The notes beneath the pieces were generated by a model. The model searched no databases. It saw only the letters and a list, made by a program, of their open reading frames with translations, and was not told the origin of the DNA. Below are positions 3-8,775 of a stretch of DNA of 64,000 nt, piece after piece (the first letter of the stretch is position 1; every line of letters begins with the position of its first letter). Position numbers and translations under genes: made by a program. The stretch comes from Nocardia brasiliensis (GTDB taxonomy: Bacteria; Actinomycetota; Actinomycetes; Mycobacteriales; Mycobacteriaceae). The stretch spans positions 6,262,001 through 6,326,000 of the forward strand of contig NZ_CP046171.1 of assembly GCF_011801125.1 (NCBI RefSeq). The letters are read 5' to 3'.

Positions 3-1259
3 CACATCATCGCCGATTCGGGCAGCACCGTCGTGCTGGTCGACGCCGACTGCGCGGAGATCGCGCGGGCGGCCGCGCCGCACGCCCGCGTCGTCGCCCT
101 GGACGGTGCCGAGTTCGCGAGCTGGCTGGCCGGTCCCGCCGACGTCGCACCCGGTGTCCGGGTCGGCGGGCGCGATGACGCCGTGATCCAGCTCTACACC
201 AGCGGCACCACCGGCCTGCCCAAAGGCGTTGTGCTGGCCCAACGCAGCTTCTTCGCCATCGCCGACGCGCTCGCCCGCGCGGGGCTGGACTGGATCGACT
301 TCCGCGCGGGCGACCGCAGCCTCATCGGCATACCCGGCTTTCATGTCGGCGGCATCTGGTGGGCCATGCAGGGTTTCGCGGCGGGCATCACCAATGTCGC
401 GATGCCGCGGTTCGACAGCGGCACCGCGGTGGCACTGATCGCGGACACCGGGATCACCACCATGTGCGTCGTTCCATCGATGTTGCGGCTGATCGTCACC
501 GAGTCGGCGGTCACCGAGGCGGCCGTCCGTTCGGTGCGCAAGGTCGTCTATGGCGGCTCGCCGATCTCGGAGACCCTGCTGCGCGAGGCACTCGAGCTCT
601 TCGACGCCGAGTTCGCGCAGATCTACGGCCTGACCGAAACCGGGAACACCGCGATCTGCCTGCCACCGCAGGATCATGTGGTGGGCAATCCCCGGCTGGC
701 CGCCGCGGGGCGGCCGTATCCCGGTGTGGCCGTTCGGGTCATCGACGAATCCGGCGCCGAACTACCGCCGGGTGCGGTGGGCGAGATCTGCCTGCGCTCC
801 CCCGCCGCCATGCTCGGCTACTGGAACCTGCCCGCCGCCACCGGCGAAACGCTGGTCGACGGGTGGATCCACACCGGCGATGCCGGATACGTCGACGCGG
901 ACGGCTATCTGTACCTCCGCGATCGGTTGAAGGACATGATCATCGTGGGCGGCGAGAACATCTATCCGGCCGAGATCGAGAAGGTGCTCACCCGGCACCC
1001 GGCCGTGGCGGACGCGGCGGTGATCGGCGTCCCGGACGAGGTGTTCGGTGAATCGGTGCACGCCTTCGTCGTGTGCAGGCCCGAAGCACAGGTGCGGGTG
1101 CGCGAATTGATGACGTTCTGCCGGGAACACCTGGCGTTGTTCAAGGTTCCGGCACGCTTCGAGCTGGTCGCCACGGTGCCGCGCAATCCGAGCGGCAAGA
1201 TCCTGCGCAGGCAGCTGCGCGAGAGGTTCTGGGCCGAGCGGGAAAGACAGGTGAACTGA
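3..1259 (+). CDS. Fatty-acyl-AMP ligase, FadD10-like (5' end outside window)
   Basis: Adenylate-forming enzyme expected to activate a fatty or beta-modified acyl chain with ATP and pass it to the carrier protein encoded next. The frame is open from base 3, so the N-terminus lies outside the window; 418 residues are visible against about 540 in FadD10. It shows the P-loop YTSGTTGLPKG, the YGLTETG core, the ATP-ribose motif HTGDAGYVD, the hinge RDRLKDMI and the C-terminal catalytic lysine in NPSGKILRR. Its stop overlaps the next start (ATGA). Position before a carrier protein and a C-A-T-R NRPS matches fadD10-Rv0100-nrp of M. tuberculosis and scoC-B-A of Streptomyces. The exact substrate cannot be read from sequence; a CoA ligase is the alternative, made less likely by the neighbouring carrier protein. 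Confidence 0.85.
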   Translation, partial: HIIADSGSTVVLVDADCAEIARAAAPHARVVALDGAEFASWLAGPADVAPGVRVGGRDDAVIQLYTSGTTGLPKGVVLAQRSFFAIADALARAGLDWIDFRAGDRSLIGIPGFHVGGIWWAMQGFAAGITNVAMPRFDSGTAVALIADTGITTMCVVPSMLRLIVTESAVTEAAVRSVRKVVYGGSPISETLLREALELFDAEFAQIYGLTETGNTAICLPPQDHVVGNPRLAAAGRPYPGVAVRVIDESGAELPPGAVGEICLRSPAAMLGYWNLPAATGETLVDGWIHTGDAGYVDADGYLYLRDRLKDMIIVGGENIYPAEIEKVLTRHPAVADAAVIGVPDEVFGESVHAFVVCRPEAQVRVRELMTFCREHLALFKVPARFELVATVPRNPSGKILRRQLRERFWAERERQVN

Positions 1260-1495
1260 TGCAACCGCTGACCTATGCCGCGGTGCGGGCGGACATCGCA
1301 GAGGCGCTGTACCTGGAGCCGGCCGAGCTGACCGATACCGAGGATCTGTTCGCCGCGGGCTTGGACTCGGTGCGGTTGATGGGGCTCATCGAACGCTGGA
1401 AGAAGCGCGGCGCCACACCGGTGTTCGTCGAACTGGCGGAGCAGCCCACCCTCGCCGCGTGGTGGCCGCTGCTCGCGCCCCCATCGGCGCGGTGA
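1259..1495 (+). CDS. Stand-alone acyl carrier protein (Rv0100/ScoB-like)
   Basis: A 78-residue carrier protein. The 4'-phosphopantetheine attachment serine is S37 in GLDSVRL, in the usual acidic, helical context. It would hold the acyl chain loaded by the upstream ligase while it is processed, then donate it to the condensation domain of the NRPS. The ATG overlaps the ligase stop and the TGA at 1493-1495 overlaps the NRPS start GTG at 1492, so all three are probably translationally coupled. An aryl carrier role, as in catechol siderophores, is possible, but the protein is free-standing rather than fused to an isochorismatase, which fits the isonitrile lipopeptide type. Confidence 0.88.
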   Translation: MQPLTYAAVRADIAEALYLEPAELTDTEDLFAAGLDSVRLMGLIERWKKRGATPVFVELAEQPTLAAWWPLLAPPSAR

Positions 1496-6938: not shown

Positions 6939-7981
6939 GCCGGGCCACGACCCGGCCACCGCTGGCCGGGCTGTCGCTGCCGATCGCGCTGTGCGCGGCG
7001 GCCGCGGTGCTGCTCGGCGTCATGGTGTTGTCGGTCGCGGTGGGCTCGGTCACGGTGTCCGCGGCCGACACCGGCCGCGTCATCATCGCCCATCTGTCCG
7101 GCCGCGGCGCCGATGTCGGCTTCACGGTCGATCAGATCGTCTGGCAGTATCGGCTGCCCAGGGTGCTGCTCGCCGCGCTGTGCGGCTGCGGACTGGCGGT
7201 GGCGGGCGTGCTGCTGCAAGCCCTGGTGCACAACCCGCTCGCGGACCCGTATGTGCTCGGCCTCTCCTCCGGCGCCTCGCTCGGCGCGGTGACCGTGATC
7301 GTCACCGCGGGTGGCGCGCTCGGCGGCATCGGGGTGTCCACCGCGGCGTTCTGCGGGGCGATCGCCACCATCGCGGTGGTGTTCCTGCTCGGCCAGCAGC
7401 GCGGCAGGCTGGCGCCCACCCGCCTGGTGCTCGCCGGTGTGGCGGTGGGCTATCTGCTGCTGGCGGCCACCAACTATCTGCAACTGCGCGCGACGCCGAA
7501 CGAGCTGCGGACAGTGCTGTTCTGGACGATGGGCAGCGTGGCGGGGGCGCGCTGGGATCGGCTCGGCCCGGTCACCGTGGTCGTGCTGGTGACCGTGGCG
7601 GTGGTGCTGGCGTTCGGGCGACGGCTCAATGTGCTCGGCACCGGCGACGAGCAGGCGGCCGCGCTCGGCGTCGACGTGCGCGCCCTGCGGATCATGCTGC
7701 TCGTGCTGTCGGCGTTGCTGACCGGTGTGCTGATCGCCGCCGCGGGCGGAATCGGCTTCGTCGGCTTGATGATTCCGCATGTGGTGCGGCTCGCGTTCGG
7801 CCAGGACCATCGGCGGGTGCTGCCGCTGTCGGCGCTGATCGGTGCCGCGTATCTGGTTGCGGTGGACCTGCTTTCGCGCACGGTCGATGCCCCCAACGAG
7901 TTGCCGCTCGGGATCTTCACCGCGGCGTTCGGCGCGCCGTGGTTCCTGTGGCTGCTGCGGCGCAACGGCAGTCGGCAATGA
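6935..7981 (+). CDS. FecCD-type ABC transporter permease
   Basis: A 348-residue integral membrane protein of the FecCD/BtuC family with about ten hydrophobic segments. Family hallmarks are RLPRVLLAALCGCGLAVAG near the first third, NPLADPYVLGLSSGASLGA, and the C-terminal GGIGFVGLMIPHVVRL, which contacts the ATPase. It forms the membrane channel for uptake of iron-siderophore, cobalamin or another metal chelate. The GTG at 6935 overlaps the lipoprotein stop (GTGA). No second permease gene follows, so the functional channel is presumably a homodimer. Confidence 0.9.
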   Translation: MSRATTRPPLAGLSLPIALCAAAAVLLGVMVLSVAVGSVTVSAADTGRVIIAHLSGRGADVGFTVDQIVWQYRLPRVLLAALCGCGLAVAGVLLQALVHNPLADPYVLGLSSGASLGAVTVIVTAGGALGGIGVSTAAFCGAIATIAVVFLLGQQRGRLAPTRLVLAGVAVGYLLLAATNYLQLRATPNELRTVLFWTMGSVAGARWDRLGPVTVVVLVTVAVVLAFGRRLNVLGTGDEQAAALGVDVRALRIMLLVLSALLTGVLIAAAGGIGFVGLMIPHVVRLAFGQDHRRVLPLSALIGAAYLVAVDLLSRTVDAPNELPLGIFTAAFGAPWFLWLLRRNGSRQ

Positions 7982-8775
7982 ATACCGCGCGCGTGGCGGC
8001 CGAATTGTCGGTGACCGGACTGTGCGTCGCCTTCGGTGCGACAACGGTGCTGGACGGGGTGACGTTGCGGGCGGCGCCCGGCTCGGTGGTCGGCGTCGTC
8101 GGGCCGAACGGCAGCGGCAAGACCACCCTGCTGCGCACGATCTATCGTTCCCTGGCGCCCAGCGGCGGGGCGATCGCGATCGACGGCGCCGACATCGGCG
8201 CGATCTCGCTCAGGGCCGCCGCCCGCACCACCGCCGCGGTGCTGCAAAACGGCTCGGGGGCAACCGAACTCACCGTGCGCGAGGTGGTCCATCTCGGCCG
8301 CAACCCGCACCACTCCCTGTTCAGCAGGGACACCGCGGTCGATGAGCAGGCCATCACGGACGCGATGGCACGCACCGGAGTCACCGCCTTCGCCGAGCGC
8401 ACCATCGGCTCGCTCTCCGGCGGCGAACGCCAGCGCGTGCTGCTCGCCCGCGCGCTGGCCCAGCAGCCGCGACTGCTGGTGCTCGACGAGCTGACCAATC
8501 ACCTGGATGTCCGTGCCCGCTTCGAGCTGCTGGACCTGGTCCGCTCGACCGGCATCACCACGCTCGCGGTCCTGCACGAACTGGATCTCGCTGTCCGGCA
8601 CTGCGATCAGCTGGTGGTGCTCGACCACGGCGCCGTCGTCGCGGCGGGCGAGGTGCTCGACGTGATGACCCCGGAGTTGCTCCGCAAGGTCTTCGGCGTG
8701 CTCGCCAGCACCGCGCGCCACGACGACGGCGTCGTCAGAGTGCACTACGCGGCAAGGCCTTTGGCCGACCCATGA
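7978..8775 (+). CDS. ABC transporter ATP-binding protein, FecE/FepC-like
   Basis: A 265-residue ATPase that would power the importer. Walker A is GPNGSGKTTLL, the signature is LSGGERQRVLLARAL, Walker B is LLVLDELTNHLD with its catalytic glutamate, and the switch histidine is in AVLHELDLA. ATG 7978 overlaps the permease stop (ATGA). It is the last gene of a six-gene, fully overlapping string running from the acyl-AMP ligase, and it ends 3 nt from the convergent SDR gene, so any terminator must lie inside coding sequence. No exporter is visible; one may lie beyond the left edge. Confidence 0.92.
   Translation: MNTARVAAELSVTGLCVAFGATTVLDGVTLRAAPGSVVGVVGPNGSGKTTLLRTIYRSLAPSGGAIAIDGADIGAISLRAAARTTAAVLQNGSGATELTVREVVHLGRNPHHSLFSRDTAVDEQAITDAMARTGVTAFAERTIGSLSGGERQRVLLARALAQQPRLLVLDELTNHLDVRARFELLDLVRSTGITTLAVLHELDLAVRHCDQLVVLDHGAVVAAGEVLDVMTPELLRKVFGVLASTARHDDGVVRVHYAARPLADP

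What the first reader, a model, noticed from the sequence alone, without database searches (positions are those of the whole stretch)
3..8775. Isonitrile lipopeptide-type synthetase genes translationally fused to a metallophore importer
Fatty-acyl-AMP ligase, stand-alone ACP and C-A-T-R NRPS match the core of isonitrile lipopeptide clusters (fadD10-Rv0100-nrp, scoC-B-A). Every junction from the ligase to the ABC ATPase overlaps by 4-7 nt, so synthesis and a FecB/FecCD/FecE importer form one coupled unit. The M. tuberculosis cluster, as I recall it, has no such adjacent importer, so this may show the missing uptake route for a diisonitrile copper or zinc carrier.
Basis: partly seen in the sequence, partly recalled or inferred. 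Interest (0 to 1): 0.85.

Follow-up and report, generated by a model that had tools for sequence, protein, structure and literature searches.

The report
Likely copper-chalkophore synthesis-and-import operon
A Nocardia-type bacterium carries one tightly coupled operon that probably both makes an isonitrile copper-scavenging molecule and takes it back up, apparently under a copper-starvation sigma factor, and some relatives have lost the making half but kept the uptake half.

Summary
The finding is real. An importer beside the cluster is not new: 42 of 71 named non-Nocardia ScoE loci have the order E-D-C-P-N-S-M, and one was published for the copper carrier SF2768 (recalled; paper not held).

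Further results. (1) A SigC-type promoter, GGGAAC-N17-CGAC, ends 9 nt before the operon in 11 of 11 Nocardia loci of this type and stands before the importer in 43 of 53 other loci. (2) The island also holds SigC, a zinc-finger anti-sigma candidate, a copper-type ATPase and a CtaG-type protein, favouring copper. (3) Six of 17 genomes with this importer type lack ScoE and ScoD. There an intact importer follows the scoE promoter, in five of six with the scoE start codon. The tree implies at least two losses, which suggests use of neighbours' chalkophores. Product, metal and uptake are not shown experimentally.

The parts
1..1259 (+). 3' part of ScoC-type acyl-AMP ligase (whole gene L009 17721-19259 = window -279..1259); upstream outside the window: ScoE-type oxidase L009 16313-17191 (window -1687..-809), ScoD-type thioesterase L009 17188-17724 (window -812..-276), SigC-type promoter L009 16277-16303 (window -1723..-1697)
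1259..1495 (+). stand-alone acyl carrier protein (ScoB type)
   Evidence: PF00550; start codon overlaps ligase stop by 1 nt
1492..5889 (+). NRPS, C-A-T-R (ScoA type); A-domain residues D-T-E-D-A-G-L-V-D
5883..6938 (+). FecB-type substrate-binding protein, probable lipoprotein (conserved Cys21)
   Evidence: PF01497; Cys21 in all 79 SBPs aligned (6 of them importer-only); 7-nt overlap with NRPS
6935..7981 (+). FecCD-type permease
   Evidence: PF01032 316.5 bits
7978..8775 (+). FecE-type ABC ATPase
   Evidence: PF00005
10568..11134 (-). ECF sigma factor SigC
   Evidence: NCBIfam PRK09649 SigC 226.4 bits, cut-off 219; PDB 2o7g M. tuberculosis SigC E 5.8e-35
11189..11215 (+). SigC-type promoter GGGAAC-N17-CGAC, 9 nt before the zf-HC2 gene
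11225..11989 (+). zf-HC2 (H-x3-C-x2-C) protein with hydrophobic stretches, candidate anti-SigC
   Evidence: PF13490 31.4 bits, cut-off 22.2; homologues in 40 of 140 loci
12003..14279 (+). copper-type P1B ATPase with N-terminal HMA domain
   Evidence: TIGR01511 503.6 bits, cut-off 397
14311..16281 (-). CtaG-type cytochrome c oxidase assembly protein
   Evidence: PF09678 304.3 bits; TIGR02737 caa3_CtaG only 35.3 bits, cut-off 279
16325..16351 (-). one-base variant of the SigC-type promoter (CGGAAC-N17-CGAC), 43 nt before the CtaG-type gene

Best explanation
The locus is a copper-starvation island. One eight-gene transcript, started by SigC-type RNA polymerase 9 nt before scoE, makes a di-isonitrile lipopeptide. 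The ligase loads a fatty acid on the ACP, ScoD adds glycine, ScoE oxidises it to the isonitrile, and the C-A-T-R NRPS acylates a diamino acid and releases the product reductively. The same transcript makes a FecBCD-type importer. The secreted product binds Cu(I); the SBP captures the complex and the permease/ATPase import it. The neighbouring copper-type ATPase and CtaG-type protein then probably place the copper in cytochrome oxidase. SigC, held back by a divergently encoded zinc-finger anti-sigma protein, switches the island on. Shown by sequence: genes, order, conserved catalytic residues, promoter conservation, linkage, deletion scars. Inferred: product, metal, direction of transport, sigma dependence, the anti-sigma role and the copper hand-off.
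For: ScoE: 157 of 278 aligned residues identical to solved ScoE. Residues discussed in PMC7949033 (Tyr96, Tyr97, Lys193, Arg195, Arg310; passages) and His132, Asp134, His295, which I take from memory as the metal ligands, are conserved, if the chain positions equal the paper's numbers, as the residue types suggest. ScoD family PF10862. Importer and synthesis co-inherited: E and SBP distances correlate, r 0.90 over the 71 loci holding both genes, 0 of 2000 permutations; 22 of 25 ScoE-bearing genomes of the genus have an SBP homologue, against 6 of 125 without ScoE. Promoter: before E in 18 of 25 Nocardia loci (11 of 11 of the window type, always 9 nt), before SBP in 43 of 53 named non-Nocardia loci and in 6 of 6 importer-only Nocardia loci; the 13 control spacings (10-15, 18-24) average 0, 0.15 and 0 hits. 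SigC equivalog. Copper context: TIGR01511 ATPase and PF09678. In M. tuberculosis SigC raises ctpB and the nrp operon (PMC7924339, abstract and passages); nrp is needed under copper but not zinc limitation (PMC9600254 passages).
Against: No chemistry, expression or uptake data were found for this organism. The A-domain code (DTEDAGLVD, 23 of 76 loci) differs from the common Streptomyces codes (DAEDIGTVV 16, DAEDVGTVV 14, DTEDVGTVV 13 of 76), so the amino acid may differ. ScoD scores below its NCBIfam cut-off. Genome-wide the motif is hardly more frequent than its reversed control (29 against 24); the case rests on position and conservation. It is missing before E in 7 of 25 Nocardia loci and before SBP in 10 of 53 others. 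Spacing 16 was left out of the position controls; in whole loci it gave 8, 0, 5 and 15 hits against 46, 17, 30 and 152 at 17. The CtaG site in the window is one base off. Other work assigns the M. tuberculosis product to zinc (cited in PMC9600254).
Confidence: 0.85

Rival explanations
1. The product is a zinc carrier (kupyaphore-type) and the importer brings in zinc.
For: A zinc role was reported for the M. tuberculosis product (described in PMC9600254, and PMC9147137).
Against: SigC-type promoters, a copper-translocating ATPase model hit and a CtaG-type protein surround the operon. PMC9600254 found copper-specific, not zinc-specific, phenotypes (passages).
Confidence: 0.07
2. It is an iron siderophore system, as the Fec-type importer names suggest.
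For: Fec/Fhu/Btu families score on the importer proteins; the best full-length NRPS models are MxcG and EntF, both far below cut-off.
Against: No catechol, salicylate or hydroxamate gene among the eight proteins; ScoE/ScoD present; every importer model shown (best 25 for the ATPase) is below its cut-off.
Confidence: 0.02
3. The importer carries an unrelated ligand (F420-0, B12, heme) and is only a neighbour.
For: The best NCBIfam hits are F420-0 and corrinoid importer models, all below cut-off. Importer-only genomes exist.
Against: Gene overlap in 11 of 11 loci; co-inheritance r 0.90 over 71 loci; a SigC-type promoter before the SBP in 43 of 53 named non-Nocardia loci.
Confidence: 0.05
4. Importer-only Nocardia use the importer for another ligand, not for foreign chalkophore.
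For: Their SBP evolves faster at the protein level: dN/dS 0.17-0.34 over 5 pairs among importer-only loci (and 0.32-0.33 for 2 pairs of L174 with producers), against 0.10-0.17 over 4 producer pairs.
Against: They keep the scoE promoter in front of the importer, the SigC-type promoters of the island, and intact constrained genes.
Confidence: 0.3

Closest known systems
sfa cluster of Streptomyces thioluteus (SF2768 chalkophore with ABC importer; Wang et al. 2017, recalled, paper not held)
   Same: As recalled, the same kind of synthesis genes and an adjacent ABC importer that promotes copper uptake. Other Streptomyces loci have the order E-D-C-P-N-S-M. The S. thioluteus locus itself was not among those fetched.
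   Different: In the Nocardia type the importer overlaps the NRPS gene. In non-Nocardia loci it starts a median 91.5 nt after the NRPS (n = 50, none overlapping), and 43 of 53 have a SigC-type promoter of their own before the SBP. The A-domain code differs.
sco cluster of Streptomyces coeruleorubidus (ScoA-E)
   Same: ScoE equivalog with the tested active-site residues, ScoD family, ligase, ACP, C-A-T-R NRPS.
   Different: The importer is part of the coupled operon here. I did not examine the sco flanks themselves.
Rv0096-Rv0101 nrp cluster with ctpB, controlled by SigC (M. tuberculosis)
   Same: Core enzymes, SigC link; in a related locus (L205) a homologous P-type ATPase, a CtaG-type gene and SigC.
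   Different: PPE gene in front of ScoE in 3 of 3 loci tested (L204, L205, L206 of five fetched) and no homologous importer found in that genus.
Corynebacterium glutamicum sigma-C copper-deprivation response
   Same: SigC regulon activated under copper deprivation (PMC7337898 passages); CtaG-type assembly protein (CtiP, recalled).
   Different: No chalkophore genes are part of that response as far as I recall.

Membership tests
Isonitrile lipopeptide (Sco/nrp) cluster | ScoE-type Fe(II)/2-oxoglutarate oxidase with its active-site residues | tested here: met
   NF049937 410 bits, cut-off 400; residues conserved
Isonitrile lipopeptide (Sco/nrp) cluster | ScoD/Rv0098-type thioesterase | tested here: met
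   PF10862 210.9 bits, cut-off 27; but NF049938 221 bits is below its 250 cut-off; PDB 5wsy (named uncharacterized protein) E 9.3e-51, Rv0098 2.4e-26
Isonitrile lipopeptide (Sco/nrp) cluster | Ligase, stand-alone ACP, single-module C-A-T-R NRPS | tested here: met
Isonitrile lipopeptide (Sco/nrp) cluster | Makes an isonitrile lipopeptide | not testable with these tools
   needs metabolite analysis
SF2768-type chalkophore system | FecBCD-type importer linked to the cluster | tested here: met
SF2768-type chalkophore system | Binds Cu(I) and delivers it into the cell | not testable with these tools
   needs binding and uptake assays
SF2768-type chalkophore system | Same A-domain code as the Streptomyces loci (lysine core) | tested here: not met
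   DTEDAGLVD against DAEDIGTVV/DAEDVGTVV/DTEDVGTVV; reading of the code positions is recalled
SigC regulon | sigC in the genome and SigC-type promoter before the operon | tested here: met
SigC regulon | Transcription depends on SigC | not testable with these tools
   needs a sigC deletion

The most novel reading that the evidence does not exclude
Diisonitrile copper carriers are a public good that is stolen. In Nocardia, at least two lineages deleted the synthesis genes from a producer operon so that the scoE promoter (in five of six genomes with its start codon) now leads into the importer, which stays intact and under selection in a SigC copper-starvation island with the copper-type ATPase and the CtaG-type protein. 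These strains would live on chalkophores made by neighbours. The same SigC-type signal stands before chalkophore synthesis or import in Nocardia, Streptomyces and several other genera, and the zf-HC2 protein usually 9 nt behind it is the missing anti-SigC copper sensor.
Probability: 0.55. Interest if true: 0.78.

Novelty: new variant of a known kind. Interest (0 to 1): 0.62.

Why it matters
Synthesis with a neighbouring importer is known. What is added is a testable regulatory rule that reaches beyond M. tuberculosis (a SigC-type promoter before chalkophore synthesis or import), a candidate anti-SigC where PMC7924339 (2021) says none is identified, a copper-delivery neighbourhood that points to cytochrome oxidase, and a natural series of producers and importer-only relatives with visible deletion scars. 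The last would make cooperation and cheating over copper directly testable, as has been done for siderophores.

Tried and rejected
Rejected: the zinc and iron readings (see rivals). The idea that the importer is a novelty in itself. That importer-only loci are assembly gaps: two of the six genomes, G118 and G142, are single-contig. That synthesis moved elsewhere in those genomes: their best ScoE-model hits have E 1e-21 to 1e-26, far from the 378-430 bits of true hits; ScoD family 0 of 6, against 3 of 3 producers. tblastn with E, D, ACP and NRPS (the ligase was not searched because of paralogues) gave no remnant of their bodies in the six loci: the NRPS hits fall in an acyl-CoA ligase gene, and two ACP hits of 26 and 49 residues have E 0.002-0.003. 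The short promoter-plus-start remnant appeared only on direct comparison.

Led nowhere or weak: the phylum sample was too sparse (ScoE 2 of 396, SBP 2 of 396). The order searches scored only 5 candidates per genome, so absences there are weaker than in the genus search, which scored up to 13 for the SBP. Named loci near contig ends undercount the importer. My gene caller is crude; starts projected from homology were used for distances. Conserved Met residues in the SBP (Met234 in 97% of 79) were seen but not pursued. No structure was predicted and one protein search was left unused.
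Full report
What is there. The window is bases 6262001-6326000 of a single-contig 7.95 Mb genome. Its nearest ScoE relatives among named genomes are Nocardia brasiliensis and N. vulneris at 92-94%, so I take its genus to be Nocardia. Left of base 1 the same operon begins: ScoE-type oxidase L009 16313-17191, ScoD-type thioesterase 17188-17724, ligase 17721-19259, where window position = L009 position minus 18000. The seven overlaps are 4, 4, 1, 4, 7, 4, 4 nt.

Is it an isonitrile cluster? Yes by family. ScoE reaches the NCBIfam equivalog cut-off (410 against 400 bits). 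It aligns to solved ScoE with 157 of 278 residues identical, and the active-site residues found in passages of PMC7949033 are conserved. ScoD is the right Pfam family but 221 bits against a 250-bit NCBIfam cut-off. The NRPS is C-A-T-R. Its A-domain residues, read by motif position (a method and a meaning I recall, not from a call), are D-T-E-D-A-G-L-V-D. They are shared by 23 of 76 loci and differ from the common Streptomyces types, so the product need not be the lysine compound.

How common is the importer? Of 71 named non-Nocardia ScoE loci (80 fetched, the best 80 of 139, less 9 Nocardia), 53 have an SBP homologue within the fetched flanks, 6 have the NRPS without it and 12 show ScoE without either, some because the contig ends. 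From memory, Wang et al. 2017 reported an iron-type ABC importer in the SF2768 cluster that promotes copper uptake. The paper is not held; [quoted passage not shown] In the genus, 25 of 150 genomes have ScoE (scores above 378 bits, next best 121). 22 of those 25 have an SBP homologue at E 1e-40 or better, 11 of the window type and 11 of a second type. In the order sample, 10 ScoE-bearing genomes belong to genus g2, which I take to be Mycobacterium from its PPE genes; none gave an SBP hit.

What is special in this Nocardia type. By projected starts the SBP overlaps the NRPS in 11 of 11 loci, against 0 of 50 measurable non-Nocardia loci, where the gap has a median of 91.5 nt. The importer has thus joined the synthesis transcript. 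E and SBP distances correlate at r = 0.90 over the 71 loci that hold both genes, 0 of 2000 permutations.

Regulation. The motif GGGAAC-N17-CGAC ends 9 nt before the scoE start here and in all 11 window-type loci. Counts by spacing (10 to 24) in whole loci peak only at 17: 46 in 25 Nocardia loci (other spacings 0-8), 17 in 6 importer-only loci (0-5), 30 in 20 order loci (0-10), 152 in 71 named loci (4-21). By position it is before E in 18 of 25 Nocardia loci and before SBP in 43 of 53 named loci and 6 of 6 importer-only loci; the 13 control spacings (16 left out) average 0, 0.15 and 0. Before internal genes it is rare: for example 3 of 24 before D (loci where D starts a unit) and 0 of 21 before the NRPS in Nocardia. 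Besides Nocardia and Streptomyces, sites before SBP or E occur in Kutzneria, Lentzea, Actinokineospora, Saccharothrix, Actinophytocola and Micromonospora loci. Results against: genome-wide the motif occurs 29 times against 24 for its reversed control, so it is informative only by place and conservation; 7 of 25 and 10 of 53 targets lack it. A second exact site lies 9 nt before the zf-HC2 gene of the ATPase operon (window 11189-11215), and a one-base variant lies 43 nt before the CtaG-type gene (16325-16351). The sigma factor between operon and ATPase is SigC by NCBIfam (226.4 against 219 bits) and by PDB match; that of mycobacterial locus L205 is too (227.1), while those of two Streptomyces loci score best on an unnamed sigma-factor model and second on SigC, both below cut-off. 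That the motif belongs to SigC is an inference from this company. In M. tuberculosis SigC raises ctpB and the nrp operon, with near-identical promoter elements before both (PMC7924339, abstract and passages). In L205 the motif lies 22 nt before a P-type ATPase homologous to the window's, 9 nt before a zf-HC2 gene and 88 nt before the PPE-ScoE genes. The library searches listed no paper that links a sigma factor to isonitrile clusters outside mycobacteria; one search showed 12 of 206 papers, and most subscription papers are not held.

The zf-HC2 protein. It has the H-x3-C-x2-C motif and hydrophobic stretches that look like membrane segments (read by eye; the membrane-protein model DUF2275 scores only 17.6, cut-off 24.6). 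It stands divergent from sigC. Homologues turned up as 41 hits in 40 of 140 loci, a few of them the same genome twice; 25 of 41 have the motif (first base G or C) 8-10 nt upstream and 24 of 41 lie within 150 nt of a sigC-like gene. PMC7924339 says no anti-SigC factor is identified. The role is inference.

Importer without synthesis. Six of 17 genomes with the window-type SBP (one, G030, split over two contigs) have no ScoE and no ScoD. SBP, permease and ATPase stand intact in the same chromosomal place: upstream acyl-CoA ligase 79-85% identical in the 5 of 6 where my gene calls found it, downstream copper-type ATPase 77-86% and CtaG-type gene 72-82%. Before the SBP stands the motif in 6 of 6 and, in 5 of 6, ATGCAG at the place of the scoE start; in L177 that start codon is gone. 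In L174, 57 of 60 nt from the motif onward match producer L043 (best of 2000 random windows 31), and the short leftover frame ends as the NRPS gene does, with the same 7-nt overlap onto the SBP. In the other five the best match is 40-42 of 60 nt (34-42 over the ten producers), where 10 of the 60 are fixed by the motif; the best of 2000 random windows is 27-30, and 40 for L175, where I did not check whether it was the site itself. For these five the single-sequence evidence is therefore weaker than for L174. On the SBP+permease tree (FastTree, midpoint root) L174 sits inside the producers (support 0.998) and the other five form a clade (0.923) beside them (0.971), with a producer basal, which implies at least two losses. 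dN/dS in 5 pairs of importer-only loci is 0.09-0.18 for the permease and 0.17-0.34 for the SBP, against 0.10-0.17 for 4 producer SBP pairs: the genes are constrained, the SBP a little less.

Wider: of 9 order-sample loci with an SBP homologue but no ScoE, 6 have a CtaG-type gene within 10 kb, although these genomes have only 1-3 copies at E 1e-60; one of the six, in G220, is a partial SBP match, and two are of one genus. This ties the importer family to copper delivery independently of synthesis; 3 of 9 do not show it, and 7 of 9 are only 38-46% identical to the window SBP, so their ligand is open.

Verdict. A complete chalkophore-type operon; a Nocardia variant of a known system. The importer as such is expected. 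The SigC rule, the copper neighbourhood, the anti-SigC candidate and the deletion-derived importer-only relatives are the parts worth following.

Noticed in passing
window 11225-11989; 41 hits in 40 of 140 loci: zf-HC2 protein divergent from sigC, its start 9 nt after a SigC-type promoter; candidate anti-SigC, with a His/Met-containing stretch (MSHHHGAEMSRH).
   Followed up: partly
L174-L179 (G129, G141, G142, G118, G013, G091): Importer-only relatives with the scoE promoter left in front of the SBP gene, in five of six with the scoE start codon.
   Followed up: yes
L041, L042, L044, L046, L047, L053, L058, L059: A second, diverged cluster type in Nocardia with the importer upstream of or divergent from ScoE and its own SigC-type promoters in several.
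   Followed up: partly
L060, L061, L063: ScoE divergent from a ScoD gene followed by an open frame of about 8 kb that begins with the ligase: a possible ligase-NRPS fusion, no importer in the fetched stretch.
   Followed up: no
L101 6196-10897, L104: In Streptomyces loci a SigC-type motif about 3.8 kb before ScoE precedes an Asp/Asn hydroxylase-type gene and an MFS transporter (Pfam run for L101 only), possibly the exporter.
   Followed up: partly
L204, L205, L206: PPE-family gene directly in front of ScoE in probable mycobacteria, where other genera have an importer in the cluster.
   Followed up: partly
L057 12839-17466: NRPS match split over two overlapping frames; frameshift or sequencing error not resolved.
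   Followed up: no
P0054: A 450-residue protein with TauD and FcoT domains in one chain (ScoE-ScoD fusion).
   Followed up: no
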